In this document: positions 32,077 through 64,000 of the stretch, piece after piece
Position numbering within the stretch: the stretch's first letter is position 1
Layout of the letters: the number at the start of each line of letters is the position of its first letter
Assembly: GCF_002105755.1 (NCBI RefSeq)
Contig: NZ_CP020821.1
Location: 682,001-746,000, forward strand
Direction: 5' to 3'
Source: Mycobacterium colombiense CECT 3035
GTDB lineage: Bacteria; Actinomycetota; Actinomycetes; Mycobacteriales; Mycobacteriaceae
DNA length: 64,000 nt
The notes under the pieces: generated by a model
Told to the model about the DNA's origin: nothing
Databases searched by the model: none
The model's input: the letters and a program-made list of their open reading frames with translations, nothing else
Made by a program: the position numbers and the translations under genes

Positions 32077-32307
32077 GTGAGCATCAATCCATTCGACGAC
32101 GACAACGGCAGCTTTTTCGTCCTGGTGAACGACGAGGAGCAACACAGCTTGTGGCCGGCCTTCGCCGATGTTCCAGCTGGCTGGCGAGTGGTCCACGGCG
32201 AAGCCGACCGAGCTGCGTGTCTGGAGTACATCGAGCAGCACTGGCCTGACATTCGGCCGAAGAGCCTGCGGGACAAGCTCGCAACGGGTCGGGGTTTTGA
32301 CCAGTAA
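32077..32307 (+). CDS. mbtH: MbtH-like NRPS accessory protein
   Basis: A 76-residue MbtH-family protein. The core motifs are all present: [24 protein letters not shown], then [14 protein letters not shown] and [16 protein letters not shown] 32077 is the start, with GGAGA about nine bases upstream; the frame extends a little further but without family residues. MbtH proteins bind and activate NRPS adenylation domains. It directly precedes mps1 (41 bp to the chosen start) and could serve all three NRPSs in the window. Confidence 0.94.
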
Positions 32308-41300: not shown

Positions 41301-42607
41301 GCCAGCGCGACCTCGACGAACTGCAGCAGCAGTACCAGATCGCCGACGTGCTGCCGCTGACCCCGCTGCAGCAGGGACTGCTGTTCCACACCGGCACCGC
41401 CCAGGGCGGCCAGGACTCCGACGACCTCTATGCGGTGCAGCTCGACATCTCCGTGACCGGCGCTTTGGACCCGGAGCGGCTGCGCGAGGCGGTGCAGACC
41501 GTCATCCGGCGCCACCCCAACGTGGTGGCCAGCTTCTCCGAGGACTTCGGGGAGCCGGTGCAGGTCATGACGACCGATCCGGCGCTCGCCTGGCAGTACG
41601 TCGAACTGGACACCGACGACGGCCCGGACGCTCACGCCGAGCAGGTCGAGCGGTTGTCCACCGCCGAGCGCGTCGCCGTCTGCGATCTGGCCGGGCAGCC
41701 GCCCTTCCGGGCCGCCCTGATCCGCACGGCGGAGAACACGTACCGGTTCGTGCTCACCAACCACCACATCGTGCTCGACGGCTGGTCCAAGCCGGTCCTG
41801 CTGCAGGAGATCTTCGCCAGTTACTTCGGGGTGCGGCTGCCCGCACCGGTGCCGTACCGCAGCTTCATCACCTGGCTGTCCGAGCAGGATCGTGCCGCGG
41901 CTCAGGCGGCGTGGCGCGACGTGCTGGCCGGTTTCGACACCCCCACGCTGGTGGCTCCGTCGGGACGCATGGCGCTGGGTCCGCGCGGCGTCGCCGAGTT
42001 CCATGTGTCCGCGGAGACGAGTCGTCTGCTCGGCGAATTGGCCCGCTCGTGCCGCACCACCGTCAGCACGGTGCTGCAGGGAGCCTGGGCGCAGCTGCTG
42101 ATGTGGCTGACCGGACAGCACGATGTGGTGTTTGGCACAGCAGTTTCGGGCCGTCCCACCGAATTGCCCGGATCCGACGCCATGGTGGGCCTTTTGATCA
42201 ATACCGTGCCGGTGCGGGCGACTATCGGCGCCGAAACCACCATCGCCGACCTGCTTGACCAGCTACAACGCGCCTACACCGACACTCTGGACCACCAGCA
42301 TTTAGCACTGAATGACATCCATCGTGTAACGGGACATGACCAAATTTTCGACACAATGTTCGTGTACGAGAACTATCCCATCGATACTGCCGCGCTATCG
42401 GCCGTGGACGAGTTAACTATTACTGGATTCACGAATCGGGAATACAACCACTACCCGCTTTCGGTGCAAGCCGTGCCAGGCCATGAAATAGGCCTTCGCG
42501 TCGAGTTCGATACAGACGTATTTGGCGAGGCGAGGATCGACAAGCTCGTAGAGCGGTTCAAGCGGGTGCTGGAAGCCATGACCGTGGACTTGGAGGAGCA
42601 GTCATGA
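32348..42607 (+). CDS. mps1: GPL peptide synthetase Mps1 (modules 1-2 plus third C domain)
   Basis: A 3419-residue NRPS with order C-A-T-E-C-A-T-E-C. Approximate residues are C1 8-430, A1 460-940, T1 945-1015, E1 1037-1480, C2 1497-1920, A2 1940-2435, T2 2445-2515, E2 2535-2975 and C3 2997-3419. Both T domains read [11 protein letters not shown], the type that precedes E domains. E domains carry [10 protein letters not shown]; the later C domains carry HHIVIDGW and HHIVLDGW. By-eye pocket residues are DFWTVAAVCK for A1 (Phe-like) and DFWSVGMVHK for A2 (Thr-like), matching D-Phe and D-alloThr of GPL. ATG 32348 has a GGGGGAG ribosome site; TTG 32297 is an alternative. The stop overlaps mps2 as ATGA. 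Confidence 0.94.
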
Positions 42608-45600
42608 CCGTCGGTGCGGGACGGCGCTTGTTGTCGATCGATCTGCTGGATGGCGGCGAACACGATCGACTCGACGAGTGGGGCAACCGGGCGGTATTGA
42701 CCAAGCCGGTCAAGGCTCCCTTGTCGATCCCCGAGATGTTCGCCACCCAGGTGGCCCGTGCTCCGCAGTCGGTGGCACTGACCTTTGGCGACCGCTCCCT
42801 GACCTACCAGGAGCTCGACGAGGCCGCGAACCGGCTGGCCCACCTGCTGGCCGAGCAGGGCGCGCGCCCGGGCGAATGCGTCGCGCTGCTGTTCTCCCGC
42901 TCGGCCGAGGCGATCATCTCGATTCTCGCGGTGCTGAAGACCGGCGCGGCCTACCTGCCGATCGACCCGGCGCTGCCCTCGGCGCGGATGGAATTCATGC
43001 TCGGCGACGCAACGCCGATCGCGGTGGTGACCACGGCCAGCCTGCGCACCCGGCTGGACGGGTTCGACCTGCCCGTCATCGACGTCGACGAAGCCGCGGC
43101 CGACGGCCAGCCCAGCAGCGCGCTGGAGGGGCCGGCGCCCGAAGACATCGCCTACATGATCTACACCTCGGGCACCACGGGGACACCCAAGGGCGTCGCG
43201 GTCACGCACCGCAACGTCACCGAGTTCGTGCGGACGCTGCACGCCGATCTGCCGACCGGGCCGGGGAAGGTCTGGTCGCAGTGGCACTCGCTGGTGTTCG
43301 ACGTCTCCGTCTGGGAGATCTGGGGCGCACTGCTCCACGGCGGTCGCCTGGTGGTGGTCCCCGAGTCCGTCGCGGGGTCGCCCGACGAACTGCACGCGCT
43401 GCTGGTGGCCGAGAAGGTCAACGTCCTGAGCCAGACCCCGTCCGCGGTGGGCATGCTCTCGCCGGAGGGCCTGGACGACACCGCGCTGGTGGTCGCGGGT
43501 GAGGCCTGCCCGGCCGAGGTGGTCGACCGGTGGGCGCCCGGACGCGTGATGATCAACGCCTACGGCCCGACCGAGGCCACCGTCTACGCCGCGATGAGCA
43601 CGGCGCTGGCGGGCGATTCGGGCGCTCCGCCGATCGGATCGCCGGTCCCAGGCGCGGCGTTGTTCGTTCTGGACAAGTGGTTGCGGCCCGCGCCGGAAGG
43701 CGTGGTCGGTGAGTTGTATGTGGCCGGCCGCGGCGTCGCCACCGGGTACGCCCGCCGGGCCGGCCTGACGGCGTCGCGCTTCGTGGCCTGCCCGTTCGGC
43801 GGGCCGGGCGCGCGGATGTACCGCACCGGTGACCTGGTCCGCTGGGGCGCCGACGGCCAGCTGCAGTACCTGGGCCGCGCCGACGAGCAGGTCAAGATCC
43901 GCGGCTACCGCATCGAACTCGGCGAGATCCAGTCGGCGCTCGCCTCGCTGGAGGGCGTCGACCAGGCCGCGGTGATCGCCCGCGAGGACCGCCCCGGCGA
44001 CAAGCGCCTGGTCGGGTACATCACCGGGACCGCCGATCCGACCGAGCTGCGCACCCAGCTGGGCAAGCGGCTGCCGGCCTACATGGTCCCGGCCGCGGTC
44101 GTCGTGCTGGAGACCCTGCCGCTGACGGTCAACGGCAAGCTGGACAAGCGCGCGCTGCCCGCGCCGGAGTACCACAAGCGCGGCGGCCAATACCGCGCGC
44201 CCGGCAACCACACCGAGGAGATCCTGGCCGGCATCTACGCCCAGGTGCTCGGCGTCGAGCGGGTCGGCGTGGACGACTCGTTCTTCGACCTCGGTGGAGA
44301 CAGCATCCTGTCGATGCAGGTGGTGGCCCGGGCCCGCGCGGCCGGCGTGATGTGCCGCCCGCGCGACGTGTTCGTCGAGCAGACGGTCGCACGGCTGGCC
44401 CGGGTGGCCACCGACGGCGCCGACGAGGACGACGTGGTCGACGAGGGCATCGGGCCGGTGCTGGCCACCCCGATCATGCATTGGCTGCAAACCGTGCAGG
44501 GCCCGATCGACGACTTCAACCAGACCATGGTGCTGGCCGCCCCCGCGGGCGTCACCTCCGAGGACGTCGCGCTGGTGCTGCAGGCCTTGCTGGACCGTCA
44601 CCCCATGCTGCGGCTGCGCGTGGAGGACGACGGCGACGGCGGCTGGTCGCTGCATGCGCCCGAGCCGGGCACCGTGCAGGCCGCCGACTGCCTGCAGTCG
44701 GTCGAGCAGCTGTCCGACGAGACCCTGGTGGCCGCCCGGTCCCGGCTGAACCCGGGCGCCGGAGTGATGGTGAGCGCCGTCTGGGCAACGGAGACAAGCC
44801 AATTGGCGTTGATCATCCACCACGTGGCCGTCGACGGCGTGTCGTGGCGGACCTTGATCGAGGACCTCAACATCGCGTGGGCGCAGCACCACAGCGGCCA
44901 GCCGGTGGCGCTGCCGACGGGTGGCACCTCGTTCGCCCGCTGGTCCTCGCTGCTGGCCGAGCACGCGCAGAGCCCGGCGGTGGTCGAGCAGGCCGACGCC
45001 TGGCGCGAGGTGGTCGCGACCCCGGCCGTGCTGCCGGCGGTGCGCCCCGAGGAGGACACCTACCAGACCGCCGAGCAGTTGTCGGTGTCCCTGGATGTCG
45101 AGACGACGCGGCTGCTGCTGGGTGAGGTCCCCGCGGCGTTCCACGCCGGGGTGCAGGACATCCTGCTGATCGCGTTCGGGATGGCGTGGACGGAGTTCCT
45201 GGGCAGCGGCACGCCGATCGGCATCGACGTCGAGGGCCACGGCCGTCAGGAAGAGCTCGGCCCGCACGTCGACCTGTCCCGCACCGTGGGCTGGTTCACC
45301 ACCAAGTACCCGGTCGCCTTGAAGGTCGACGGCCTGGACTGGGCGAACGTGGTGGCCGGTGACGACGCGTTGGGCGCGGCGATCAAGGCCACCAAGGAGC
45401 AGCTGCGCGCCCTGCCGGACGGACTGACCTACGGCCTGCTGCGCTACCTGAACCCCGACGTCGACCTGGGCGGATCCGACCCCGTGATCGGGTTCAACTA
45501 CCTGGGACGGCTGGGCGCGGCCGCCGACCTGCCGGGCGAGCTGTGGCGGCTGAGCCCCGACAGCCTGTCGCTGAGCGGCGCGGCCGCGGCGGTGGCGATG

Positions 45601-48600
45601 CCGCTGATGCACACCGTCGACCTCAACGCCGGCACCATGGACACCGAGGAAGGCCCGCACCTGCACGCCAACTGGACGTGGGCGGCCTCCGCGATGGACC
45701 GGGAGCAGATCAACCGGCTGAGCCAGCTGTGGTTCGAGGCGCTGACCGGCATCTGCGCCCACGTGCAGGCCGGCGGCGGCGGGCTCACCCCGTCGGACAT
45801 CGCGCCCGCACGCCTGAACCAGCCGCAGATCGACGAGCTGAGCAAGCAGCACCAGATCGCCGACATCCTGCCGCTGACCCCGTTGCAGCAGGGGCTGCTG
45901 TTCCACGCCAGCTTCGCGCAGGACCCGGGCGACGACGTCTACGCGGTGCAGCTCGGCATCACCGTGACCGGCGAGCTGGACTCGCACCGGCTGCACGACG
46001 CCGTGCACACCGTGGTCAGCCGGCACCCCAACCTGGCGGCCCGGTTCTGCCCGCAGTTCGGTGAGCCCGTCCAGGTCATCCCGGCCGACCCGGTCATGGC
46101 GTGGCGGTACATCCAGCTGGGCGCCGAGGACCTCGACCCCGAGCAGCGGGTCGAGGAGCTGTGCGCCGCCGAGCGCGCCGCGGTGAGCGACCTGGCGAAC
46201 CGTCCGGCATTCCGGGCCGCGCTGATCCGCACCGCGGACAACCGGTACCGGTTCGTGCTGACCAACCACCACATCGTGATGGACGGCTGGTCGCTGCCGA
46301 TCCTGCTGCGCGAGATCCTCGCCAACTACTACGGCGACCAGTTGCCCGCGCCGGCGACCTACCGCAGCTACCTGACGTGGCTGGCCGGACAGGACCGCAC
46401 CGCCGCGCAGGCGGCCTGGCGCCAGGTCCTCGAGGGCTTCGACACGCCCACCCTGGTGGGTCCGGCGGGCCGGATGAAGCTCGGCCGGCGAGCCGTGGAG
46501 TCCTACCGGCTGTCCGCGGAGACCACGCTCGCCCTGGGCGAGCTGGCCCGCTCGTGCCACACCACCGTCAACACCGTGCTGCAGGCCGCGTGGGCGCAGC
46601 TGCTGATGCGCCTCACCGGCCAGCACGACGTCGCGTTCGGCACCGCGGTGTCGGGGCGGCCGGCCGACCTGATCGGCGCCGAGTCCATGGTGGGTCTGCT
46701 GATCAACACCGTGCCGGTGCGGGCCAGCATCACCTCGGAGACCACCGTCGCCGACGTGCTGGAGCAGCTGCAGCAGCACCACAACGACACCCTCGAGCAC
46801 GAGCACCTGGCGCTGAGCGACATCCACCACGTCACCGGCCACGACGCGCTGTTCGACACCTTGTTCCTGTACGAGAACTACCCGATCGACACCAGCGTGC
46901 CGTTGGGCTTCCACGAGTTGGCCATCACCGATGTCACCAACCGCGAGTACAACCACTACCCGCTGTCGGTGATGGCGCTCCCGGGCCGCGAGCTGGGCCT
47001 GCGCGTCGAATTCGACACCGACGTGTTCGACGCGGCCGGCATCGAGAAGCTGACCGAGCGGTTCCAGCGGGTGCTGTCGGAGATGACGGTCGACCCGACC
47101 CGAAAGCTGATGTCGCTGGACGTCGTCGACGAGCACGAGCACGCGTGGCTGGACGAGCGGGGCAACCGCGCGGTGTTGAGCCAGCCGGCGACCGGCAAGT
47201 CCATCCCGGCCATGTTCGCCGCGCAGGTGGCCAGCACCCCGGACGCGGCGGCGCTGACCTTCGACGGCCGCTCGATGACGTATCGGGAGCTCGACGAGGC
47301 CGCCAACCGGATGGCGCACCTGCTGACCGAAGAGGGCGCCGGCCCGGGCGAGCGGGTCGCGCTGCTGTTCTCGCGCTCCGCCGACGCGATCGTCTCGATC
47401 CTTGCGGTGCTCAAGACCGGGGCGGCCTATTTGCCGATCGACCCGGCCCTGCCGGCCGCGCGGATCGAGTTCCTGCTGGCCGACGCCGAGCCTGTCGCCG
47501 TGGTCACCACCGCGGGGCTGCGGGATCGGCTGGACGGCTGCAACCCGACGGTCATCGACGTCGACGACCCGGAGCTGGCCGCCCAGCCCAGCACGGCGTT
47601 GCCGATCCCGTCGTCGGACAACATCGCCTACGTGATCTACACCTCGGGAACCACCGGTGTCCCCAAGGGTGTGGCCGTCACCCACGAGAACGTCGCGCAG
47701 CTGCTGGAGACGCTGCACGCCGACCTGCCGGAGGCGGGGGTGTGGGCGCAATGGCACTCGCTGGTGTTCGACGTGTCGGTCCACGAGATCTGGGGCGCGC
47801 TGCTGCACGGCGGCCGCCTGGTGGTGGTGCCCGAGTCGGTCGCGGCTTCGCCCGACGAGTTGCACGCGCTGCTGGTCTCCGAAGGCGTCACCGTGTTGAG
47901 CCAGACCCCGTCGGCGGTGGGCATGCTCTCGCCGGAGGGCCTGGAGTCGACGGCGTTGGTGGTGGCCGGTGAGGCCTGCCCGGTCGAGGTTGTCGATCGG
48001 TGGGCGCCGGGACGGGTGATGATCAACGCCTACGGCCCGACCGAGGCCACCGTGTACGCGGCGATGAGCGCTCCGCTGGCGAGCGGAACAGGGTCGGCGC
48101 CGATCGGTTCGCCGGTGCCGCGCGCCGCGCTGTTCGTGCTGGACCGCTGGCTGCGACCGACACCCGAGGGCGTCGTCGGCGAGCTGTACATCGCGGGACA
48201 CGGTGTGGCCACTGGTTATTCGCGCCGGCCCGGCTTGACGGCGGGACGCTTCGTCGCCTGCCCGTTCGGCGGCCCGGGTGCGCGGATGTACCGCACGGGC
48301 GACCTGGTCCGGTGGGGCCGCGACGGTCAGCTCGAGTACCTGGGACGGGCCGACGAGCAGGTCAAGCTGCGCGGCTACCGCATCGAGCTCGGTGAGGTCC
48401 AGGCGGCCCTCGCCTCGCTGGAGGGCGTCGAGCAGGCGGCGGTGATCGCCCGCGAGGACCGTCCCGGTGACAAGCGGCTGGTGGGCTACATCACCGGAAC
48501 GGCCGACCCGGTCGGGATCCGGATCCAGCTCGCGGACCGGCTGCCGGCCTACATGGTGCCGGCCGCGGTGGTGGCGTTGGACGCGCTGCCGCTGACGGTC

Positions 48601-50253
48601 AACGGCAAGCTGGACAAGCGCGCCCTGCCCGCACCGGAGTACCAGAAGCGCGGCGGCGAGTACGTCGCGCCGGCCGACCCGACCGAAGAGATCGTGGCCG
48701 ACATCTTCGGCCGCGTCCTCGGCATGGAGCGGGTGTCGGTCGAGGACTCCTTCTTCGAGCTGGGCGGCGACTCGTTGTCCGCGATGCGGGTGATCGCCGA
48801 GATCAACACCGCCGTCGATGGCGCCCTGTCGGTGCGCACCCTGTTCGACTCGCAGTCGGTGCGCGCACTGGCGCACCGGATCACCAGCGGTGCGGACACC
48901 GAGGGCGCCGCGGGACCCGGCTTCGCGGCGGTGCACGGCGCCGACGCCAAGGAGGTGTTTGCCCGCGACCTCACGCTGGACAAGTTCATCGACGCGACGA
49001 CGTTGTCCAACGCGCCGGCGCTGCCCGGCCCGAGCGCGGAGGTCCGCACGGTCCTGCTGACCGGTGCGACCGGGTTCCTGGGTCGCTACCTGGCACTGGA
49101 ATGGCTCGAGCAGCTGGAACAGGTCGACGGCAAGCTGATCTGCCTGGTGCGGGCCCGCTCCGACGAGGACGCGTGGCGCCGCCTGGAGAAGACCTTCGAC
49201 AGCGGTGACCCGGATTTGCTGCGGCACTTCCAGGAGCTGGCCGAAGAGCACCTGCAGGTCGTCGCCGGTGACAAGGGCCAGGCCAACCTCGGGCTGGACG
49301 ACGAGACGTGGCAGCGGCTGGCCGACACCGTCGACCTGATCGTCGACTCCGCGGCCGTCGTCAACGGTGTCCTGCCCTACAACGAGCTGTTCACCCCGAA
49401 CGTCGGCGGCACCGCGGAGCTGATCCGGCTGGCGATCACTACGAAGAAGAAGCCGTACGCGTACGTGTCGACGTCGGACGTGGGCCGCCAGATCGACCCG
49501 GCTCAGTTCACCGAGGACGGCGACATCCGGGTGATCAGCGCCCGGCGCGTCATCGACGGCGGCTACGCCAACGGGTACGGCAACAGCAAGTGGGCGGGCG
49601 AGGTCCTGCTGCGCGAGGCCAACGACTTGTGCGGCTTGCCGGTCTCGGTGTTCCGCTCCGACATGATTCTGGCCGACACCACCTACGCCGGTCAGCTCAA
49701 CGTGGCGGACATCTTCACCCGGATGATCCTGAGCGTCGTGGCCACCGGCACCGCGCCCAAGTCCTTCTACCAGCTGGACGCCGACGGCAACCGGCAGAGC
49801 GCGCACTTCGACGGCCTGCCCGTCGAGTTCGTCGCCGAGGCCATCGCCAAGCTGGGCGCCCAGGTGATGGACGGGTTCGAGACGTACCACGTGATGAACC
49901 CGCACGACGACGGCATCGGGCTCGACGAATACGTCGACTGGCTGATCGAAGCCGGCTACCCGATCGAGCGCGTCGGCGACTTCGGTGAGTGGCTGCAGCG
50001 CTTCGAGACCGGCCTGCGCGGCCTGCCGGAACGGCAGCGGCAGAACTCGGTCCTGCAGATGTTGACGTTGCTGCTGCGGGAACCGAAGAACCTGCAGCCC
50101 GCCGAGCCGGCCCGGGGGGCCTTCGCCCCGACGGATCGCTTCCGCGCGGCGGTGCAGGAAGCCAAGGTGGGTTCCGACAACGACATCCCGCATGTCAGCG
50201 CGTCGGTGATCGTCAAGTACGTCACCGACCTGCAACTGCTCGGTTTGCTGTAA
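42604..50253 (+). CDS. mps2: GPL peptide synthetase Mps2 with terminal reductase
   Basis: A 2549-residue NRPS with order A-T-E-C-A-T-R. Approximate residues are A 45-520, T 535-600, E 620-1060, C 1080-1500, A 1535-2012, T 2025-2095 and R 2145-2549. It starts with A because the matching C domain ends Mps1. Pocket residues read by eye are DVWSVAAVYK and DVHSVAAVYK, closely alike, as expected for two Ala-type sites (D-Ala then L-alaninol). The first T is [11 protein letters not shown] (before E); the last is [11 protein letters not shown]. The R domain shows [18 protein letters not shown] and [11 protein letters not shown] (Y-x-x-x-K). It releases the chain reductively as the amino alcohol. Confidence 0.94.
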
Positions 50254-50266
50254 TCCCTTACGACGA

Positions 50267-50310
50267 AAACGAATGCGGCGTGGTCCACCCGGACCACGCC
50301 GCATTCGTTT
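50267..50310 (+). terminator. Strong stem-loop terminator after mps2
   Basis: A perfect 20-bp inverted repeat (arms 50267-50286 and 50291-50310) with a 4-base loop begins 13 bases after the mps2 stop. The left arm starts aaac and the right arm ends gttt, so the hairpin is flanked by A and U runs within the stem. It should stop the mbtH-mps1-mps2 transcript, which makes the following NRPS a separate unit. Confidence 0.85.
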
Positions 50311-50867: not shown

Positions 50868-53800
50868 ATGGAGCTTGAGAGCCAGGCACTTCCGCTGACG
50901 CGCGGACAACTGGACATATGGCTTGCGCAGGAAACGGGCCACTCCGACACCGAGTGGCAGCTCGGCCTGTTCGTGCGGATCAACGGCATGGTCCAGCGCG
51001 ACGCCCTGCAGTGGGCGATCCGGCAAGCCGTGCACGAGGCGGAACCGACCAGGGTCGCCTTCTTCGAGGTCGACGGCGAGGTCGTCCAGCGGCCGATCGA
51101 GGACCCAAACGTCGAGTTGACGTTCCTCAACCTGAGCGATTCGCCCGATCCCGAGCAGGAAGCCCGTCGCCGAGCGCTGGCCATTCAGCGCACGCCCATG
51201 CCGCTCACCGGGCCGCTGTTCAAGTTCGTCCTCTTCCAGACCCGGCGAGACGAATTCTTCTTCTTCGCGTGCTGCCATCACATCGTGATCGACGGCACCG
51301 GCGTGGGGCTGGTCGGCCATCGCATCGCCTCCATCTACTCCGCGATCGTGTCCGCCGGCCCCATCCCGACGGGGGTCTTCGGCTCGCTGCGGGAGCTGAT
51401 CGACTGCGAATCGCACTACGAAGCCTCCGACGAATACCGCGAGGACGAGGCCTACTGGAGCGCCAACCTGCCCACGGACAGCGAAGCGCAGCACCGCATG
51501 CCCGACGGCGCGGGGGAGCGTGACCCGTGGCCGTCCGCTCCGGTCGCGCTGGACCCCGCGGTGGTGCGCCGGGTGCAGCGGTTCTCCGACGTTTGGGGCG
51601 TGTCGCAGACCTCGGTCATCACGGCGGCGTGCGCGCTGTTGGTCCGCGGGTGGTGCGCGAACGGCTCGGAAGTGGTGCTCGATTTCCCGGTCAGCCGGCG
51701 CGTGCGCCCGGAGTTGAAGACGCTGCCCGGCATGGTGGCCGGCGTCGTGCCGCTGGTGTTCACCGCCGGGCCACGGGCAACGGTCGCCGAGTTCTGCAAG
51801 CACGTCGAGAAGCGCATCGACGAGGCGGTGCAACACCAGCGATTCCCGGTGCACGCCCTGGAGCGCAAGGTCCGCGGCCTGACGAAGCCACCCGAACGGG
51901 TCAGCGTCAACTTCATCCCGTCCGCGTTCACCCTGCCCTTCGGTGGCGTCATGGCCTCGGCGTCGTACACGAACTCCGGTCAGGCCGACGGCTTCGGCCT
52001 CATCTTCTCCAGCGACGGTGACGAACTCTTCCTCAGCACGGCGGGCAGCTGGCAGCCCTGGTCCGGCCTGGACGCTCCCGACCTGGCGGCGCGTCTGCAG
52101 CGGCTCCTGGTGGCGATGACGGCCGATCCCACCAGGCCGCTGAGGACACTCGATGTGGTCGACGAGAGCGAGCGCGCCCGGCTCGACGGGTGGGGCAACG
52201 AGGCCGTCCTGGCCGAGCCGATGGAACCCGTGTCGGTGGTGGGGTTGTTTGCGGCGCAGGTGGGGCGGACTCCGGATGCGGTGGCGTTGACGTTCGAGGG
52301 CGAGTCGATGACCTACCGCGAGCTCGATGAGGCGGCTAACCGGTTGGCGAACCTGTTGGTGGAGTGTGGTGCCGGTCCGGGACAGGTTGTGGCGCTGTTG
52401 TTGTCGCGGTCGGCCGAGGCGGTCGTGGCGATTGTGGCGGTGCTCAAGTCCGGGGCGGCCTACCTGCCGATCGATCCCGCGCTGCCGGGGGCGCGGGTGG
52501 AGTTCATGGTGGCCGACGCGGGCCCGCGGGTCGCGGTCACCACGGCCGAGCTGGCCGGCAGGTTGGCCGGCTTCGACCTGACCGTGGTCGATGTCGGTGA
52601 TCCGGCGGTGGCGGGGTGGCCCAGCAGCGCGCCGGCTGCGCCGGGGCCGTCGGATCTGGCGCACATCATTTACACGTCGGGTACCACGGGTGTGCCCAAA
52701 GGTGTTGCGGTGAGCCAGCACAACGTGGCGCAGTTGTTTGACGGGTTGGATCTTGGGTTCGCGCTGTCGGCCGGGCAGGTGTGGACGCAGTTTCATTCGT
52801 ATGCGTTCGATTTCTCGGTGTGGGAGATCTGGGGGCGTTGCTGCACGGTGGGCGGTTGGTGGTGGTGCCCGAGGCGGTGTCGCGTTCTGCTGAGGAGTTT
52901 CATGCCCTGTTGATTCGTGAGGGTGTCACGGTGTTGACCCAGACCCCGTCGGCGGCTGCGGTGGTGTCCGCGGAGGGCCTGGACGGTACGGCGTTGGTGG
53001 TCGGGGCCGAGCCCTGCCCGCCCGAGTTGGTGGACCGGTGGGCGCCGGGGCGGGTGATGGTCAACGTTTACGGCCCCACCGAGACCACCATGTGGGTCTC
53101 GCACAGCACGCCACTGACCCCCGACCTCGGCGCACCACCAATCGGGTCACCGGTGACCCGCGCGGCGTTCTTCGTGCTGGACGAGTGGCTGCGCCCGGTG
53201 CCCGCCGGCGTGGTCGGGGAGCTCTATCTCGGCGGTGAAGGCGTGGGCGTCGGGTATTGGCGTCGGCCCGGGCTGACCGCGTCGCGGTTCATCGCCTGCC
53301 GGTTCGGGCAGGCGGGCACCCGGATGTATCGCACCGGCGACCTCGTCTGCTGGGGTCGCGACGGGCAGCTGCGCTACTTCGGCCGGGCCGACGAGCAGGT
53401 CAAGGTGCGTGGCTATCGCATCGAGCTGGGCGAAATCCGCACCGCACTAGCCGAATTGGACGGCGTTGAACGGGCGGCGGTGCTGGTTCGTGAAGATCGT
53501 GTCGGCGACAAGCGCGTCGTCGGCTATGTGACTGGAGCCGCTGACCCGGCCGACATTCGGGCCCGGTTGGGTCAGCGGCTCCCCACATATATGGTGCCCG
53601 CGGCGGTGGTGGTGCTCGACGCGCTGCCGGTGACGCTCAACGGCAAGCTGGACACCCGCGCCCTGCCCGCCCCCGAATATCAGGGCGGCCACGGCTACCG
53701 CGCACCGGAAACCGCCATCGAGGAAATCCTGGCCGGCATTTTCGCCCGGGTCCTCAACGTCGACCGTGTCGGCATCGACGACTCGTTCTTCCACCTCGGC

Positions 53801-56800
53801 GGCGACTCCCTGTCAGCGATGCGGCTCGTCTCCGCAATCAACACCGGACTGGACGCCCATCTGGGCGTGCGGATCCTGTTCGAGGCGCCCTCCGTCGCCG
53901 AACTGGCGCCGCATGTTTGCGGAGGCGGGAGCAAGCTCGCCCGGGTGGTGGCGGCCGACCGGCCGACCGTGGTGCCGTTGTCCTTTGCCCAGTCGCGACT
54001 CTGGTTCCTCGACCAGCTGCACGGGCCGTCGCCGGTGCACAACATGGCGGTGGCCCTGCGGCTGACGGGACGGTTGGACGCCGACGCGATGGGCGCCGCC
54101 CTGGGCGACGTGGTAGCCCGCCACGAAAGCCTGCGAACCGTCTTCGTCGCGGACCAGGGGACACCCCGGCAAGTGGTGGTCCGGGCCGACGGCGCCGAAG
54201 TCGGCTGGCAGGTCATCGATGCCTGCGGGTGGCCGATAGAGCGACTGAGCGAAGCCATCGACACCGTGGCACGGCACCGTTTCGATCTGTCCAACGAAAT
54301 CCCGTTGCGAGCAATGCTTTTGCGCCTCGCCGACGACGACCACGTGTTGGTTGCGGTGGCCCACCACATTGCCGCCGACGGATGGTCACTCACCCCGCTG
54401 GTGCGGGACCTGGGCATCGCGTACGCCGGCCGGTGCGGCGGCCGTGCGCCGGATTGGGCGCCGTTGGCGGTGCAGTACGTGGACTACACGTTGTGGCAGC
54501 GGGCCCAATTCGGTGACCTGGACGATCCATCCAGTCCGATCGCCGGGCAGCTGGGGTATTGGCAGCGGGAGTTGGCTGGATTGCCCGAACGCGCTGAGTT
54601 GCCGACGGACCGGCCGTATCCGTTGGTGGCCGATTATCGCGGGGCCAGCGTGGACATCGACTGGCCCGCGCAGTTGCAGCAGCAGGTGCGTGCGGTGGCG
54701 CGGGCGCACAACGCGACCGAGTTCATGGTGATGCAGGCCGCGCTGGCGGTGCTGCTGGGCAAGCTGAGTGCGAGTTCGGATGTGGCGGTGGGCTTTCCGA
54801 TCGCCGGTCGAAGCGATCCCGCGCTGGACGACGTGGTGGGGTTCTTCGTCAACACGTTGGTGCTGCGGGTGGACCTCGGCGGTGACCCCAGCGTCGCCGA
54901 GCTGCTGGACCGGGTGCGCCAGCGCAGCCTGGCCGCCTACGAACACCAGGACGTGCCCTTCGAGGTACTCGTCGAACGGCTCCATCCCGCCCGCAGCCTC
55001 GCGCATCACCCGCTGGTCCAGGTGGTGCTGGCCTGGCAGAACCTGCCGTGGCAGCACGACGGCCCGGCCGCCGGCCTGGAACTCGGCGACGTGCGGGTCA
55101 CCCCGTTGCCGCTGGACACCCAGGTTGCCCGGATGGACCTGGTGTTCTCGCTCGCCGAACGCTGGACCGACGACGGCCAACCCGCCGGCATCGGCGGCGC
55201 GGTCGAGTTCCGCACCGACGTCTTCGATCCGTCGAGCATCGAAACGCTGATCGAGCGGTTTCATCGGGTACTGACGTCGATGACCGCCGATCCCGCGCAA
55301 CGGCTTTCGTCGATCGACCTGCTCGATGACGCCGAGCGTGAGCTGCTCGACGCGGCCGGCAACCGCGCGGTCGTCACCCTGCCGCCCATGGCGTCGGTGT
55401 CGATTCCGGCGTTGTTCGCCGCGCAGGTGGCGCGCGCCCCGGGAGCGGTGGCGGTCACCTGCGGTGCGCGGTCGCTGACTTACCGCGAGGTCTACGAGTC
55501 CACAAATCGATTGGCGCACTTGCTTTTCGAGCGGGGCGCCGGACCGGGCGAGCGCGTCGCGGTGGTGATCCCGCGGTCGGCCGACGCGATCGTCGCGATC
55601 CTGGCGGTGCTCAAGACGGGGGCGGCCTACGTGCCGATCGACCCGAGCGTGCCGGCGGCCCGGTTGGACTTCGTGCTCCGTGATGCCGAGCCGATCGCGG
55701 CGGTGACCACCGCCGAGGTGCGCTCCCGGCTGGACGGGTTCGGCGGGGCGATCATCGACGTCAATGACCCGGCCCTGCGCACCCGGCCCGCCACCGGCCT
55801 GCCGGTGCCGGCCGCCGACAGCATCGCCTACATCATCTACACCTCCGGCTCGACCGGCGTTCCCAAGGGGGTGGCGGTCACCCACCGCAGCGTCACCCAG
55901 CTCTTGGACGCGATAGACGCCGGGCTGAGCCCGGGCGAGGTCTGGAGCCAGTGCCATTCGCTGGCGTTTGACTTCTCGGTCTGGGAGATCTTCGGTGCGC
56001 TGCTGCGCGGCGGTCGGCTGGTGGTCGTGCCCGACGCGGTGGTGCGTTCGGCTGAGGACCTGCATGCGTTGCTGGTGCGTGAGCAGGTCAGCGTGCTGAG
56101 TCAGACGCCGTCGGCGTTTTATGCGTTGCAGAGCGCCGATGCGTTGGCGCCGGAGTTGGGTGAGCAGTTGAAGTTGCAGACGGTGGTCTTCGGTGGTGAG
56201 GCGCTGGAGCCGCGTCGGTTGTCGACGTGGTTGCACCGGCATCCGGGGCTGCCCCGGATGGTCAATATGTATGGCATCACCGAGACCACGGTGCACGCGT
56301 CGTTCCGCGAGATCGTCGACGCGGACATCGACAACAACGTCAGCCCCATCGGGGTTCCCCTGCCGCACTTGGGCTTTTTCGTGATGGATGGCTGGCTGCG
56401 TCAGGTGCCGGTCGGTGTGGTCGGTGAGCTGTATGTCGCAGGCGGTGGGCTGGCCACCGGTTATGTGGGCCGCCCGGACCTGTCGGCCACGCGGTTCGTG
56501 GCCTGCCCGTACGGGGCGCCGGGTGCGCGGATGTATCGCACGGGTGATCTGGTGCGCTGGGGCGCCGACGGGCAGCTGCAGTACCTGGGCCGCTCCGACG
56601 AACAGGTCAAGGTGCGTGGGTATCGCATCGAGTTGGGCGAAATCCGTGCGGCGCTAAGCGATCTGGACGGCGTCGAGCACGCGGCGGTGATCGCCCGCGA
56701 AGACCGGGCCGGCGAGAAGCGTCTCGTCGGCTATGTAACCGGAGCCGCTGATCCGACCGACATTCGGGCCCGGTTGGGTCGGCGGCTCCCCACATACATG

Positions 56801-59800
56801 GTGCCCTCGGCGGTGGTGGTGCTCGAGGCCCTGCCGCTGACGGTCAACGGCAAGCTGGACACCCGCGCGCTGCCGGCGCCGGAATACTCCGACGCCGATC
56901 GTTACCGGGCCCCGGTGAGCGCCATCGAGGAGATCCTGGCCGGCATCTACGCCCAGGTGCTCGGTGTGGAGCGGGTCGGTGTCGACGACTCCTTCTTCGA
57001 CCTCGGCGGCGATTCGCTGTCGGCGATGCGCCTGATCGCGGCGGTGAACACCGCGCTGAATGCCGGGGTTTCGGTGCGGACGCTGTTCGAGGCGCCCACC
57101 GTGGCCCAGCTGGCGCCGCGACTCGGCGACGGCGGTGTGCGCAGTGCCCGCGTGCTGGCGGGTCCACGACCGGCGTCGGTGCCGTTGTCGTTCGCGCAGT
57201 CCCGGTTGTGGTTCATCGACCAGTTGCAGGGGCCCTCGCCGATGTACAACATGCCGGCGGCACTGCGCATGTGCGGCCGATTGGACGTGGAGGCCCTGCA
57301 TGCCGCGCTGATCGATGTGGTGGCACGGCACGAGAGCTTGCGCACGGTGTTTCCCGTCTCCGACGGGACACCGCGGCAGGTCGTGATACCCGCTGAACGG
57401 GTGGACGTCGGGTGGGACGTAGTTGATACCGCCGGTTGCTCACCGGCACGGATGAAGGAGGCAGTTGATGCCGCGGCAAGTCACGTATTTGACCTCGCAA
57501 CCGAAATACCCATACAAGCAAAGCTATTCCGTCGCGGCGATGACGAGCATGTGTTGGTGGCGGTGGTCCATCATATTGCTGCGGATGGTTGGTCGCTGAA
57601 CCCACTCGTGCGCGATCTCGGGGTCGCGTACGCCGGCCGGTGTGCCGGCCGTGCGCCGGATTGGGCGCCGTTGGCGGTGCAGTACGTGGATTACACGTTG
57701 TGGCAGCGGGCCCAATTCGGTGACCTGGACGATCCATCCAGTCCGATCGCCGGGCAGCTGGGGTATTGGCAGCGGGAGTTGGCTGGATTGCCCGAACGCG
57801 CTGAGTTGCCGACGGATCGGCCGTATCCGTTGGTGGCCGATTATCGCGGGGCCAGCGTGGACATCGACTGGCCCGCGCAGTTGCAGCAGCAGGTGCGTGC
57901 GGTGGCGCGGGCGCACAACGCGACCGAGTTCATGGTGATGCAGGCCGCGCTGGCGGTGCTGCTGGGCAAGCTGAGTGCGAGTTCGGATGTGGCGGTGGGC
58001 TTTCCGATCGCCGGTCGAAGCGATCCGGCGCTGGACGATGTGGTGGGGTTCTTCGTCAACACGTTGGTGCTGCGGGTGGACCTCGGCGGTGACCCCAGCG
58101 TCGCCGAGCTGCTGGACCGGGTGCGCCAGCGCAGCCTGGCCGCCTACGAACACCAGGACGTGCCCTTCGAGGTACTCGTCGAACGGCTCCATCCCGCCCG
58201 CTCCCTCGCCTATCACCCGCTGGTGCAGGTGATGCTCGCCTGGCAGGGCAACGACCCCACGCAGCTGAACCTGGGTGGCCTGCAGGTCACCGCCGAGCCC
58301 GTCCAGACCCACACCGCCCGTGTGGATTTGACGTTCTCGATGTCCGCCCGCTGGGGTGAGGACGGCGGGCCGGCCGGGATCGGCGGAACGGTCGAGTTTC
58401 GCACCGACGTGTTCGACGCGGACACCATCCGCACCCTGACCGAACGACTGCGTCGGGTATTGGTCGCCCTGACCGAGGATCCGCGCCGCCGCCTCTCGTC
58501 GATCGACGTGCTCGAGAACAACGAATGCGAGCGACTGACCGCGTTGGGTAATCGGCCCGCCCTGGGTCGGGCGTCGGCGCCGGTGTCGGTGGTGGGGTTG
58601 TTTGCGGCGCATGTGGGGCGGACTCCGGATGCGGTGGCGTTGACGTTCGAGGGCGAGTCGATGACCTACCGCGAGCTCGATGAGGCGGCTAACCGGTTGG
58701 CGAACCTGTTGGTGGAGTGTGGTGCCGGTCCGGGACAGGTTGTGGCGCTGTTGTTGTCGCGGTCGGCCGAGGCGGTCGTGGCGATTGTGGCGGTGCTCAA
58801 GTCCGGGGCGGCCTACCTGCCGATCGATCCCGCGCTGCCGGGGGCGCGGGTGGAGTTCATGGTGGCCGACGCGGGCCCGCGGGTCGCGGTCACCACGGCC
58901 GAGCTGGCCGGCAGGTTGGCCGGCTTCGACCTGACCGTGGTCGATGTCGGTGATCCGGCGGTGGCGGGGTGGCCCAGCAGCGCGCCGGCTGCGCCGGGGC
59001 CGTCGGATCTGGCGCACATCATTTACACGTCGGGTACCACGGGTGTGCCCAAAGGTGTTGCGGTGAGCCAGCACAACGTGGCGCAGTTGTTTGACGGGTT
59101 GGATCTTGGGTTCGCGCTGTCGGCCGGGCAGGTGTGGACGCAGTTTCATTCGTATGCGTTCGATTTCTCGGTGTGGGAGATCTGGGGGGCGTTGCTGCAC
59201 GGTGGGCGGTTGGTGGTGGTGCCCGAGGCGGTGTCGCGTTCTGCTGAGGAGTTTCATGCCCTGTTGATTCGTGAGGGTGTCACGGTGTTGACCCAGACCC
59301 CGTCGGCGGCTGCGGTGGTGTCCGCGGAGGGCCTGGACGGTACGGCGTTGGTGGTCGGGGCCGAGCCCTGCCCGCCCGAGTTGGTGGACCGGTGGGCGCC
59401 GGGGCGGGTGATGGTCAACGTTTACGGCCCCACCGAGACCACCATGTGGGTCTCGCACAGCACGCCACTGACCCCCGGCCCCGGCGCACCACCAATCGGG
59501 TCGCCAATCTCTGGGGCGGCCCTGTGCGTGCTGGACCAGTGGCTGCGCCCGGTGCCGATCGGTGTGGTCGGGGAACTGTACGTCGCCGGTGCCGGGGTGG
59601 GCGTCGGCTATCTCGGCCGGGCGGGACTGTCGGCGTCGCGATTCGTGGCCTGCCCGTTCGGCGCGCCCGGCCAACGCATGTACCGTACCGGGGACCTGGT
59701 GCGGTGGGGGGCCGATGGACAGCTGCGCTACTTCGGTCGGGCCGACGAGCAGGTCAAGGTGCGTGGCTATCGCATCGAGCTGGGCGAAATCCGCACCGCA

Positions 59801-62800
59801 CTAGCCGAATTGGACGGCGTTGAACGGGCGGCGGTGCTGGTTCGTGAAGATCGTGTCGGCGACAAGCGCGTCGTCGGCTATGTGACTGGAGCCGCTGACC
59901 CGGCCGACATTCGGGCCCGGTTGGGTCAGCGGCTCCCCACATATATGGTGCCCGCGGCGGTGGTGGTGCTCGACGCGCTGCCGGTGACGCTCAACGGCAA
60001 GCTGGACACCCGCGCCCTGCCCGCCCCCGAATATCAGGGCGGCCACGGCTACCGCGCACCGGAAACCGCCATCGAGGAAATCCTGGCCGGTATTTTCGCC
60101 CGGGTCCTCAACGTCGACCGTGTCGGCATCGACGACTCGTTCTTCCACCTCGGCGGCGACTCCCTGTCAGCGATGCGGCTCGTCTCCGCAATCAACACCG
60201 GACTGGACGCCCATCTGGGCGTGCGGATCCTGTTCGAGGCGCCCACCGTCGCCCAGCTGGCGCCACGCGTGGAGGCCGGTGTCGGTCGCGCGGACCGGTT
60301 GGCGCCCACCGAGCGACCCGCGCTGCTGCCGTTGTCGTTCGCCCAGTCCCGCCTGTGGTTCATCGACCAATTCCAGGGACCGTCGCCGGTGTACAACATG
60401 GCGGTCGCCCTGAAACTCAACGGGCCGGTGAATACCGACGCGATGGGCGCCGCCCTGCGCGACGTGGTAGCCCGCCACGAAAGCCTGCGAACCCTGTTCG
60501 TCGCACCCGAAGGCACACCCCAGCAGGTGATCGTCGCGCCCGAGCGCAGCGACGTCAGCTGGCAGGTCGTCGACGCCACCCGCTGGCCGGCGTCCTGGCT
60601 GGCGGAGGCGACCCAGGAGGCGGCCCGCTACACTTTCGACCTCGCGAACGAAATTCCCTTGCGGGCATGGCTTTTCCAGACGGGCGACGACGAGCACGTC
60701 TTGGTGGCGGTCGTACACCACATCGCCGCGGACGGGTGGTCGCTGACGCCGCTCGTCCGCGACCTGGGGGCGGCCTATGCCATCAGGTCCACCGGACGGA
60801 CACCCGATTGGGCGCCGCTGCCGGTGCAATACGCGGATTACACGCTGTGGCAGCGGGCCCACTTCGGCGACCTGGAGGATCCGGCCAGCCCCATCGCCGG
60901 GCAGCTCGCCTACTGGGAACAAGCCCTGGCCGGGCTGCCCGAACATGTTGAGCTGCCCACGGATCGGCCGTATCCCTTGGCGGCCGATTACCGCGGATCC
61001 AGTGTCGACGTGCAATGGCCGGCCGAACTTCAGCAACGGGTCGCCCGCCTGGCGCATACCCACAACGCGACCGGTTTCATGGTCGTCCAGGCCGCGCTGG
61101 TGGTGCTGCTGGGCAAGCTGAGTGCGAGTTCGGATGTGGCGGTGGGCTTCCCGATCGCCGGTCGAAGTGATCCGGCGCTGGACGATGTGGTGGGGTTCTT
61201 CGTCAACACGTTGGTGCTGCGGGTGGACCTCGGCGGTGACCCCAGCGTCGCCGAGCTGCTGGACCGGGTGCGGCAGCGCAGCCTGGCCGCCTACGAACAC
61301 CAGGACGTGCCCTTCGAGGTACTCGTCGAACGGCTCAACCCGTCCCGCAGCCTGGCTCACCACCCGCTGGTCCAGGTGATGTTGGCCTGGCAGAACAACG
61401 ATCCCGTCGACCTGAGCCTCGGCGACGTGCAGGTCACCCCGCTGCCCCTGGAGACCCAGGTCGCCCGAATGGACCTGGTGTTCTCGCTCGCCGAACGCTG
61501 GACCGACGACGGACAACCCGCCGGCATCGCCGGAACCGTGGAATTTCGCACCGACGTCTTCGATGCGGCCAGCATCGAGACGCTCGTCGCGCGATTGCGG
61601 CAGGTGCTGTCGGGCATGGCCGACGACCCTGCCCGGCCGCTGTCGTCGATCGACATCCTCGACGCGTCGGAACACACCCGGCTCCATGAGATCGGCAACC
61701 GCGCGGTCTTGGCCCGGCCGCCGAGGGGGACGGTCTCGATCCCCGCACTGTTCGCCGGCCAGGTCGCTCGCACGCCGGGGGCGGTGGCGATCACCTGCGG
61801 GCGACGGTCGTGGACCTACCGCGAGCTCGATGAGTCGGCGAACAGGTTGGCGCACATGCTCGTTGGCCGCGGCGCGGGCCCGGGCCGACGGGTGGCGGTG
61901 ATGATCCCGCGGTCGGCCGACGCGATCGTCGCGATCCTTGCGGTGCTCAAGACAGGCGCGGCCTACGTGCCAATCGACCCGGCTCTACCGCTGGCCCGCA
62001 TCGAATTCATGCTCACCGATGCCGCTCCGATCGCGACGGTCAGCACCGCCGAATTCCCTGCCCGACTTGATATTTCCGGTCCGCTCATCGATATCGACGA
62101 CCCCGGCGTGCGCACCCATCCCAGCACCGGGCTGCCGGCGCCGACGGCGGACAACATCGCGTACGTCATCTACACCTCGGGGACCACGGGCACCCCCAAG
62201 GGGGTCGCGGTCACCCACCACAACGTCACCCAGCTGCTGCAGTCGGTGGATGCTCAGCTGGGCCTGGGGCAGGTCTGGAGCCAGTGCCATTCCCTGGCGT
62301 TCGACTTCTCGGTGTGGGAACTCTTCGGGTCCCTGCTGCGAGGCGGGCGTCTCGTCGTCGTTCCCGACCAGGTCGTCCGATCGCCAGAAGACCTGCACGC
62401 CTTACTGATCGCCGAACGGGTCAACGTCTTGAGCCAAACCCCGTCGGCGGCGGCGGTACTGCCGTCCGATGGCCTGGAATCGGTGGCGCTGATCGTCGGC
62501 GGTGAACCGTGCCCGCTGGAGGTGATGGATCGGTGGGCGCCCGGGCGCGTGATGGTCAACCAATACGGCCCCACCGAGACCACGATGTATGCGGCGATGA
62601 CCGTGCCGCTGACCGCGGGCCTCGATTCGGTGCCGATCGGCTCGCCGGTTCCCGGCGCCGCGCTGTTCGTGCTGGATCACTGGCTGCGTCCGGTGCCGCC
62701 CGGCGTGGTGGGGGAGCTGTACATCGCGGGGCGGGGCGTCGCCACCGGTTATCTCGGCCGGGCCGGCCTGACGGCATCGCGGTTCGTCGCCTGCCCGTTC

Positions 62801-64000
62801 GGCGGCTCCGGCGCGCGCATGTACCGCACCGGGGACCTGGTGCGCTGGGGCGCGGACGCGCAGCTGGACTATCTCGGGCGCGCGGACGAACAGATCAAGA
62901 TCCGCGGCTACCGCATCGAGCTGGGCGAGATACACTCTGTGCTCACCGAATTGGAGGGCATCGAGCAGGCCGCGGTCATCGCCCGCGAGGACCATCCGGC
63001 CGCCGTGCGGCTGGTGGGGTATGTCACCGGGACGGCCGACCCGTCCGAGGTGCGGTCGCAACTCGCCGAACGGTTGCCGCCCTACATGGTGCCGGCCGCC
63101 GTCGTGACGCTCGACGCACTGCCGCTGACGGTCAACGGCAAGCTCGACACCCGCGCCCTGCCCGCCCCGGACTACGGCATCAACGAATATCGGGCCCCGG
63201 CCGACGCGATCGAAGAGATCCTGGCCGGCATCTACGCCCAAGTCCTCGGCCTCGAGCGGGTCGGCATCGACGATTCGTTCTTCGACCTGGGCGGGGACAG
63301 CATCTTGTCGATGCAGGTGGTGGCCCGCGCCCGCGCCGCCGGCGTAATGTGCCGGCCGCGCGATGTTTTCGTCGAGCAGACGGTGGCCCGGTTGGCCCGG
63401 GTCGTCACGCTGACGACCGCCGAAGACGACGCGGCCGACGACGGGGTCGGGCCGGTGCTGGCCACCCCCATCATGCGCTGGCTGCGGGACATGGACGGTC
63501 CGATCGAGCAGTTCAACCAGACCATGGTGCTGTCGGCCCCAGCGGAGGTGGGCCAGGCCGACGTGCAGGTCGTGCTGCAGGCGCTGCTGGATCGGCATCC
63601 CATGCTGCGGCTCTGCGTCGACGACGACGGAGCCGGCGGGTGGTCGCTTGAGGTTCCCGAGGCGGGCGCGGTGGACGCCCGCGCCTGCCTGCGGACCGTC
63701 GACGTGCTCTCCGATGCGGCCGTGAGGCAGGCCCGGTCGCGGCTGAACCCGGGCGCCGGGGCGATGGTGAGCGCGGTATGGGCCAGTGCGACAAACGAAT
63801 TGGCGCTGATCATTCACCACCTGGCCGTCGACGCCGTCTCGTGGCGGACCTTGATCGAGGACATCAACGTCGTTTGGGCGCAGCACCACAGCGGTCAGCG
63901 CATCGAGCCGCCCGCGGGCGGCACGTCGTTCGCGCGCTGGTCGTCGCTGCTGGCCGACCATGCACGGAGCCCCGCGGTGCTCGACCACGCGGACGCGTGG
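50868..64000 (+). CDS. Third multimodular NRPS, frameshifted in A1 and cut by window end
   Basis: At least four modules. Approximate nucleotides are C1 50880-52150, A1 52230-53680, T1 53700-53920; C2 53960-55330, A2 55400-56870, T2 56900-57120; C3 57180-58550, A3 58590-60040, T3 60060-60280; C4 60320-61700, A4 61740-63170, T4 63190-63410; and E4 from 63450. ATG 50868 follows GGGGAG. A five-G run at 52831-52835, where the copy at 59184-59189 has six, shifts the frame; read literally the product stops at 52913 (681 residues). After the shift the frame is open to base 64000. C1 resembles the Mps1 starter C; C2-C4 are LCL type (HHIAADGW). Pocket reads are A1 and A3 DFWTVGVMWK (unassigned), A2 DFWSVGMVHK (Thr-like), A4 DFWSIGQMYK (unassigned). 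T4 is the pre-E type. Likely makes a second lipopeptide. Confidence 0.85.
52231..53890 (+). repeat. A1-T1 unit duplicated at 58584-60244
   Basis: Bases 52231-53148 match 58584-59502 almost exactly (the G-run deletion and scattered substitutions differ), and about 53370-53890 match 59724-60244. Between them about 215 bp (53149-53365) is clearly diverged. So the first and third A-T units of the third NRPS are recent copies with a swapped internal segment. Confidence 0.8.
54421..54994 (+). repeat. C2 segment duplicated at 57628-58201, part shared with C4
   Basis: A 574-bp block in the C-terminal half of C2 is nearly identical to the same part of C3 at a constant offset of 3207 bp, with only a handful of substitutions. 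The right third is also shared with C4 at about 61103-61335. This indicates recent copying among C domains. Confidence 0.8.
56025..57010 (+). repeat. A2 unit shared with Mps1 A2 (38796-39781)
   Basis: Blocks 56025-56356 and 56819-57010 match 38796-39127 and 39590-39781 at one constant offset (17229 bp), almost base for base. The sequence between them is similar but more diverged. Identity ends exactly where the T domains differ in type (GGDSL against GGDSI). Confidence 0.82.

What the first reader, a model, noticed from the sequence alone, without database searches (positions are those of the whole stretch)
50868..64000. A third large NRPS next to mps1-mps2, a likely second lipopeptide line
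The sequence shows a complete GPL pair ending in a reductase and a strong terminator, then another NRPS with its own starter-like C domain and at least four modules. Established knowledge: the GPL tetrapeptide needs only Mps1 and Mps2, while some mycobacteria, such as M. avium subsp. paratuberculosis, make a different lipopeptide. Inference: this gene makes a second acylated peptide, of the form acyl-X-Thr-X-D-Y-..., which could share MbtH, MmpL and acyl supply with GPL. I have not seen this arrangement described.
Basis: partly seen in the sequence, partly recalled or inferred. Interest (0 to 1): 0.85.

Follow-up and report, generated by a model that had tools for sequence, protein, structure and literature searches.

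The report
Third lipopeptide synthetase beside GPL genes
Next to the genes for a well-known surface lipid, this mycobacterium carries a further giant enzyme gene that should build a seven-residue lipopeptide; related species keep the gene intact, while the copy in this assembly is interrupted in three places.

Summary
Directly 3' of mps1-mps2 lies a third NRPS gene (here NRPS3), starting at 50868 and running past the window to about 75578. It has seven modules (starter C first, E only in module 4) and ends in a reductase 78% identical to that of Mps2. Adenylation codes, calibrated within the genus on GPL and an L5P-type synthetase, suggest acyl-Ile-Thr-Ile-D-X-X-Thr-X released as an amino alcohol. 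The same gene follows mps1-mps2 in 12 of 12 relatives where both starts lie on one contig, and is one intact ORF in 8 of 8 relatives fetched whole (five with 7 modules, three with 5). Published primers place the window in Mycobacterium colombiense CECT 3035 or a near-identical strain. Selection on the pieces is not relaxed, so assembly error or very recent mutation is likelier than old decay, but this is unproven. It is a new member of a known kind: neither GPL, L5P nor GL8P synthetase. The freshest points are module-number variation between species and a module 1 to 3 sequence conversion.

The parts
24908..27826 (-). MmpL transporter (tmtpC region)
   Evidence: Pfam MMPL E 1.1e-233; CECT 3035 tmtpC primers match here exactly
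27916..30807 (-). MmpL transporter
   Evidence: Pfam MMPL E 1.3e-227
30804..31439 (-). MmpS-like protein
   Evidence: Pfam Mycobact_memb E 5.5e-69
32086..32238 (+). MbtH domain (gplH), the only MbtH found near NRPS3
   Evidence: PF03621 match C1:714086-714238; 4 MbtH matches in the genome
32168..42607 (+). mps1 (pstA): C-A(Phe)-T-E-C-A(Thr)-T-E-C
   Evidence: CECT 3035 pstA primers exact at 32720 and 32897
42604..50253 (+). mps2: A(Ala)-T-E-C-A(Ala)-T-R
50267..50310 (+). Hairpin after mps2, perfect 20-bp stem, terminator-like
   Evidence: -44 kcal/mol for 77 nt, z -7.7; equivalents in 5 of 5 relatives folded; no T run
50868..52913 (+). NRPS3 first frame: starter C1 (50856-52175 by the model) and N-terminal half of A1 (to about 52.87 kb)
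   Evidence: starter clade 100/100
52781..64000 (+). NRPS3 second frame (continues to 65212 beyond the window): rest of A1-T1; C-A-T; C-A-T; C-A-T-E; start of C5
53942..57121 (+). Module 2, C-A-T, code DFWSVGMVHK = GPL Thr code
57149..60268 (+). Module 3, C-A-T, code DFWTVGVMWK (Ile by L5P calibration)
60296..64000 (+). Module 4, C-A-T-E (E runs to 64714 past the window), code DFWSIGQMYK, D residue expected
52227..53910 (+). A1-T1 tract 95.8% identical to module 3 (58580-60264); holds frame break 1
58580..60264 (+). A3-T3 tract, the counterpart of the A1-T1 tract

Best explanation
NRPS3 is a lipopeptide synthetase. Its starter C domain joins a fatty acyl chain to the first residue. Seven modules then build acyl-Ile-Thr-Ile-D-X4-X5-Thr-X7. 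A terminal reductase of the Mps2 type then releases the chain as an amino alcohol, as alaninol is made in GPL. It uses the MbtH of the GPL cluster and perhaps its exporters. Shown by sequence: domain order, the three C-domain classes, one E domain, the reductase, the two Thr codes identical to that of GPL, synteny, and intact orthologues. Inferred: Ile from the L5P calibration, the acyl group, alcohol release, shared partners, surface location. In this assembly the gene is cut by three frame breaks, most likely assembly errors or very recent mutations.
For: Domain anatomy. C-domain tree: C1 with the GPL and L5P-type starters (100/100), C5 with the after-E class (100/99), C2, C3, C4, C6 and C7 in a third clade (100/100). 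Codes calibrated on GPL Phe/Thr/Ala/Ala and on the L5P-type gene, which carries a methyltransferase in module 2. Reductase 78% identical to that of Mps2, with GATGFLG and YxxxK. Same position after an mps1-like start in 12 of 12 relatives with both on one contig. One ORF of 6177-8406 aa in 8 of 8 relatives fetched whole. dN/dS of the pieces against two intact relatives 0.215-0.299, against 0.217-0.289 between those two.
Against: The own copy is not one frame. Codes of X4, X5 and X7 have no calibrated match. No dedicated acyl-activating, MbtH or sugar/methyl-transfer gene was seen beside it: downstream are an AraC regulator, a nitronate monooxygenase and housekeeping-type genes. No product or transcript is known to me. 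The hairpin suggests that it is not simply read through from mps2, and no sigma-70-like promoter was found.
Confidence: 0.78

Rival explanations
1. In this strain NRPS3 is a real, recent pseudogene: the three frame breaks are true mutations and no product is made.
For: Three breaks in one 25-kb gene, while mps1, mps2, both MmpL genes, a 4180-aa PKS frame and a 3106-aa frame (pks12-like and FAS-like, names recalled) are open. Broken or short relatives of the other giant NRPS genes also occur in other genomes, so real loss of such genes happens (G224 4814+5513 for the 989-kb type; frames of 1457 aa in G337 and 795 aa in G046 for starters that may belong to the 1.65-Mb type).
Against: dN/dS of the pieces equals that between two intact relatives. 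Two other giant NRPS genes and one PKS of the same assembly are also split where some relatives have one long frame. Break 1 lies in a 1.7-kb near-duplicate tract, a place prone to assembly or polishing trouble.
Confidence: 0.3
2. It is the L5P-type or lipooctapeptide synthetase, or another already characterised mycobacterial lipopeptide gene.
For: Same starter-C class and GPL-like domains; one module code (Ile) shared.
Against: The L5P-type gene is a separate locus, in this genome at C1:988.9-1019.4 kb, with E in module 1; in G337 its module 2 carries a methyltransferase. NRPS3 has E only in module 4 and ends in a reductase. The GL8P locus, as described in PMC11978893, has a bi- and a hexamodular gene with E at 1, 3, 6 and 8 and a thioesterase.
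Confidence: 0.08
3. NRPS3 acts together with Mps1/Mps2 to lengthen or diversify GPL, rather than making its own product.
For: Adjacent in the 12 relatives where it can be seen; MbtH possibly shared.
Against: Both mps2 and NRPS3 have their own release reductase, and both lines their own starter C domain.
Confidence: 0.04

Closest known systems
GPL synthetase Mps1/Mps2 (PstA/PstB)
   Same: Adjacent locus; same starter C class; Thr code identical; reductase 78% identical; presumably the same MbtH
   Different: Seven modules in one gene instead of four in two; E only in module 4; other residues
L5P synthetase of M. avium subsp. paratuberculosis and its longer relatives in this group
   Same: Single giant lipopeptide NRPS with starter C; shares the code that aligns with Ile
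   Different: Separate locus; the L5P type has E in module 1, a methyltransferase in module 2 (G337), and no reductase was seen in the G364 gene
GL8P synthetase MAB_4690c/MAB_4691c of M. abscessus (PMC11978893)
   Same: A GPL-like NRPS locus besides GPL itself
   Different: Two genes, eight modules, four E domains, thioesterase, locus 600 kb from GPL (paper text); NRPS3 is one gene, seven modules, one E, reductase, next to GPL

Membership tests
Lipopeptide NRPS with starter condensation domain | First C domain of the acyl-accepting starter class | tested here: met
   C1 groups with GPL C1 and L5P-type C1, support 100/100
Lipopeptide NRPS with starter condensation domain | Complete modules through to a release domain | tested here: met
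   Seven modules then NAD_binding_4 reductase, but over several frames in this assembly
Lipopeptide NRPS with starter condensation domain | A fatty acylated peptide is made | not testable with these tools
   Needs lipid chemistry
GPL synthetase (Mps1/Mps2) | Four modules Phe-Thr-Ala-Ala, E in the first three | tested here: not met
   Seven modules, E only in module 4, different codes
L5P synthetase | Module order D-Phe, N-Me-Val, Ile, Phe, Ala with E in module 1 and methyltransferase in module 2 | tested here: not met
   NRPS3 order differs, no E in module 1; an L5P-type gene is elsewhere in the genome
GL8P synthetase | Bi- plus hexamodular pair, E at 1, 3, 6 and 8, thioesterase release | tested here: not met
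   One gene, E at 4, reductase; GL8P features from PMC11978893
Reductase-released NRPS | Terminal NAD(P)-binding reductase with GxxGxxG and YxxxK | tested here: met
   GATGFLG and YGNSK, 78% identical to the Mps2 reductase
Reductase-released NRPS | Product ends in an alcohol or aldehyde | not testable with these tools
   Inferred from GPL alaninol

The most novel reading that the evidence does not exclude
MAC and related slow growers carry, built into the GPL locus, an unrecognised lipopeptide-alcohol line. Its chain length evolves by clean loss of whole modules (seven to five, by different deletions in different lineages). Recombination between modules kept near-identical by conversion drives this, so sister species display different surface lipopeptides.
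Probability: 0.35. Interest if true: 0.62.

Novelty: new member of a known kind. Interest (0 to 1): 0.45.

Why it matters
Surface lipopeptides of non-tuberculous mycobacteria shape colony form and serology (GPL, L5P and GL8P are known examples). A conserved further lipopeptide gene in the GPL locus gives a predicted product to look for in MAC lipid extracts and a possible species marker. It also offers a natural series of NRPSs that differ by whole-module loss.

Tried and rejected
MAP pstA as the orthologue: rejected, because PMC3537567 (passages) describes it as an mps1-mps2 deletion-fusion. L5P synthetase as the orthologue: rejected on E and methyltransferase positions and on locus. Plasmid origin: the longest plasmid matches are 66-74% identical over part or most of the query and lie mainly in other NRPS genes.

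Substrates of X4, X5 and X7: not assigned. The X5 code DVQSIGAVDK looks nearest to Arg or Orn codes, from memory only. Decay versus error at the breaks: not settled. A first pass at the adenylation codes used a wrong anchor for position 278 and was replaced.

Full report
WHAT IS THERE. The window is G000:C1:682001-746000 of a 5,581,643-base one-contig genome. RT-qPCR primers printed for M. colombiense CECT 3035 in PMC4477443 (passages and part of the primer table seen) match it exactly as pairs for pstA, tmtpC, tmtpA and mtfD. Of 15 primers tested (16 were visible) 11 have an exact site in the 90 kb searched and 4 have none; the latter may lie outside. The strain is therefore CECT 3035 or nearly so. 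Named public loci 92.6% and 93.6% identical over 12.5 and 11.6 kb are M. colombiense E1334 and NS-7390.

ANATOMY. Domain models built here from the window's own domains give: mps1 C-A-T-E-C-A-T-E-C; mps2 A-T-E-C-A-T-R; NRPS3 C-A-T | C-A-T | C-A-T | C-A-T-E | C-A-T | C-A-T | C-A-T-R from 50856 to 75431. The gene starts at the ATG at 50868 and its last frame stops at 75578. Pfam confirms C, A, PP-binding and NAD_binding_4 domains in the pieces scanned. A C-domain tree of 28 rows puts C1 with the GPL and L5P-type starters (100/100) and C5 with the C domains that follow E (100/99). C2, C3, C4, C6 and C7 form one further clade (100/100) with the remaining L5P-type C domains. The own C5 row has a long branch; part of it was probably read in the wrong frame near break 2.

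RELEASE AND PARTNERS. The terminal reductase is 78% identical over 405 positions to that of Mps2 and keeps GATGFLG and YGNSK. The genome search found four MbtH matches: one in front of mps1, one just before the 989-kb NRPS, one just before the 1.66-Mb NRPS, and one at 2.07 Mb near a mycobactin-like locus (name recalled). None lies beside NRPS3. MmpS and two MmpL genes are divergent from mbtH-mps1. Downstream of NRPS3 come an AraC regulator and a nitronate monooxygenase, then class I tRNA synthetase, IMS polymerase, signal peptidase II, pseudouridine synthase and short-chain dehydrogenase genes. No glycosyl- or methyltransferase was among the ten downstream frames scanned in those two calls.

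SUBSTRATES. Codes were read with motif anchors; the GrsA numbering is recalled. GPL modules give DFWTVAAVCK (Phe), DFWSVGMVHK (Thr), DVWSVAAVYK and DVHSVAAVYK (Ala; one differs slightly in G224 and G325). The script failed on the own mps1 Thr domain; five of five relatives gave that code, and the own sequence printed reads the same by eye. NRPS3 gives M1 DFWTVGVMWK (read from its two pieces apart), M2 DFWSVGMVHK, M3 DFWTVGVMWK, M4 DFWSIGQMYK, M5 DVQSIGAVDK, M6 DFWSVGMVHK, M7 DFWTAAVIVK. Another giant NRPS (G337 7204 aa; G364 10,421 aa; own genome at 989 kb) begins, in G337 and G364, Phe-E, DAGIVVGIWK, DFWTVGVMWK, Phe, Ala, with a methyltransferase in module 2 of G337. These five modules match the published L5P, D-Phe-N-Me-Val-Ile-Phe-Ala (PMC8103206, passages), so DFWTVGVMWK most likely means Ile. 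The gene goes on beyond module 5, with an E there, which L5P itself does not show; G364 has eight A domains. PMC11978893 says that a lipooctapeptide from a rough M. avium agrees with MAC predictions. PMC8103206 cites that same 1996 paper for the five-residue L5P, so the two papers do not agree.

CONSERVATION. A search of 396 genus genomes, own included, with the starter region gave 17 relatives at 73-91% DNA identity over at least 1426 of 1933 bases; the next best of such length was 71%. Shorter A-domain matches of 79-81% occur in other genomes and were not counted. In 12 of the 12 where an mps1-like start (called so by ORF length, and by domains in five) and the NRPS3 start lie on one contig, they are 18.28-18.52 kb apart (own genome 18.51). 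In the other 5 they lie on different contigs or no mps1-like start was listed. In 8 of 8 relatives fetched whole the gene is one ORF: G364 8406, G046 8291, G100 8237, G224 8232 and G325 8231 aa with seven modules; G270 6215, G337 6180 and G118 6177 aa with five. The remaining nine were not seen whole; several matches lie near a contig end, and I did not check each.

MODULE LOSS AND CONVERSION. Best-match mapping of domains to G364 shows that G118 and G270 lack modules 2 and 3 (C1-A1-T, then C4 onward). G337 lacks A2-T2-C3 and A6-T6-C7. The seven-module form also occurs in the more distant group (G224, G325, G100), so five is probably derived. In G224 many A and T domains do not map one to one, so shuffling there cannot be excluded. 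In the own genome A1-T1 and A3-T3 are 95.8% identical over 1685 bp with one gap, against 74-76% in G364, G046 and G224. Own A3 resembles G364 A1 (78%) more than G364 A3 (70%). So module 3 was probably overwritten by module 1. Recombination between two such tracts would give the G118/G270 layout; that step is inference.

FRAME BREAKS. The own copy changes frame in A1, C5 and A5. M. colombiense E1334 is open across the first place up to its contig end. NG86 dN/dS of the pieces against G364 and G046 is 0.215-0.299, and 0.217-0.289 between those two; for mps1 and mps2 the figures are 0.131-0.154 and 0.107-0.109. In the same assembly the 989-kb NRPS is split into frames of 5896, 1498 and 4103 aa, the 1.65-Mb NRPS into 3384, 1932 and 951, and a PKS at 914 kb into 637 and 1533. 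Relatives differ: for the 989-kb type ten of those listed have one ORF of 10,379-10,453 aa, others 7021-7713 aa, and G224 two frames (4814, 5513). For the 1.65-Mb type G364 (5952) and G118 (5959) are long, while presumed counterparts in G337 (1457) and G046 (795) are short. The PKS counterparts in G364 and G046 have about 2135 aa. Another own PKS frame is 2737 against about 3700 in both. I therefore favour assembly error or very recent mutation, without proof.

LITERATURE. Nine searches (open-licence PMC only, top listings seen) showed no paper describing a lipoheptapeptide or this gene in MAC. PMC11978893 (abstract, sections 6 and 12, and passages read) reports a second GPL-like locus in some GPL producers that varies by species; its Data S1 was not readable. 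PMC4477443 and PMC3537567 (passages) treat the GPL peptide synthetases of M. colombiense and others; the passages seen do not mention a third NRPS.

VERDICT. Real, well conserved, and of a known kind: a further mycobacterial lipopeptide synthetase. What is fresh is its predicted product, its place beside mps1-mps2 across species, and the module-number variation.

Noticed in passing
G000:C1:988927-1019359 (L073, L074): L5P/lipooctapeptide-type NRPS, in this assembly split into three frames; ten listed relatives have one ORF near 10,400 aa, others 7021-7713 aa.
   Followed up: partly
G000:C1:1645076-1662110 (L075): Third giant NRPS, five modules or so, split into three frames; G364 has one ORF of 5952 aa with different codes at positions 1, 4 and 5.
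   Followed up: partly
G000:C1:914216-915168: PKS acyltransferase domain split between frames of 637 and 1533 aa; presumed counterparts in G364 and G046 have about 2135 aa.
   Followed up: no
L005/L006 and L008/L009: M. numidiamassiliense and M. rhizamassiliense each show two neighbouring mps1-mps2-like pairs with different codes; the second mps2 is cut by the locus end.
   Followed up: no
window 52095-57039: M. avium and M. intracellulare plasmids (e.g. NZ_AP012556.1) carry NRPS genes about 73% identical to this stretch.
   Followed up: no
window 2986-24666: Sugar and C-methyltransferase genes, glycosyltransferases, a pyruvyl transferase and an ABC-2 transporter, as in a MAC-type GPL glycosylation cluster.
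   Followed up: no
L040 9891-14831: M. lepraemurium has a heavily broken relative with codes DVWTVVAMCK and DIWCLGEMWK.
   Followed up: no
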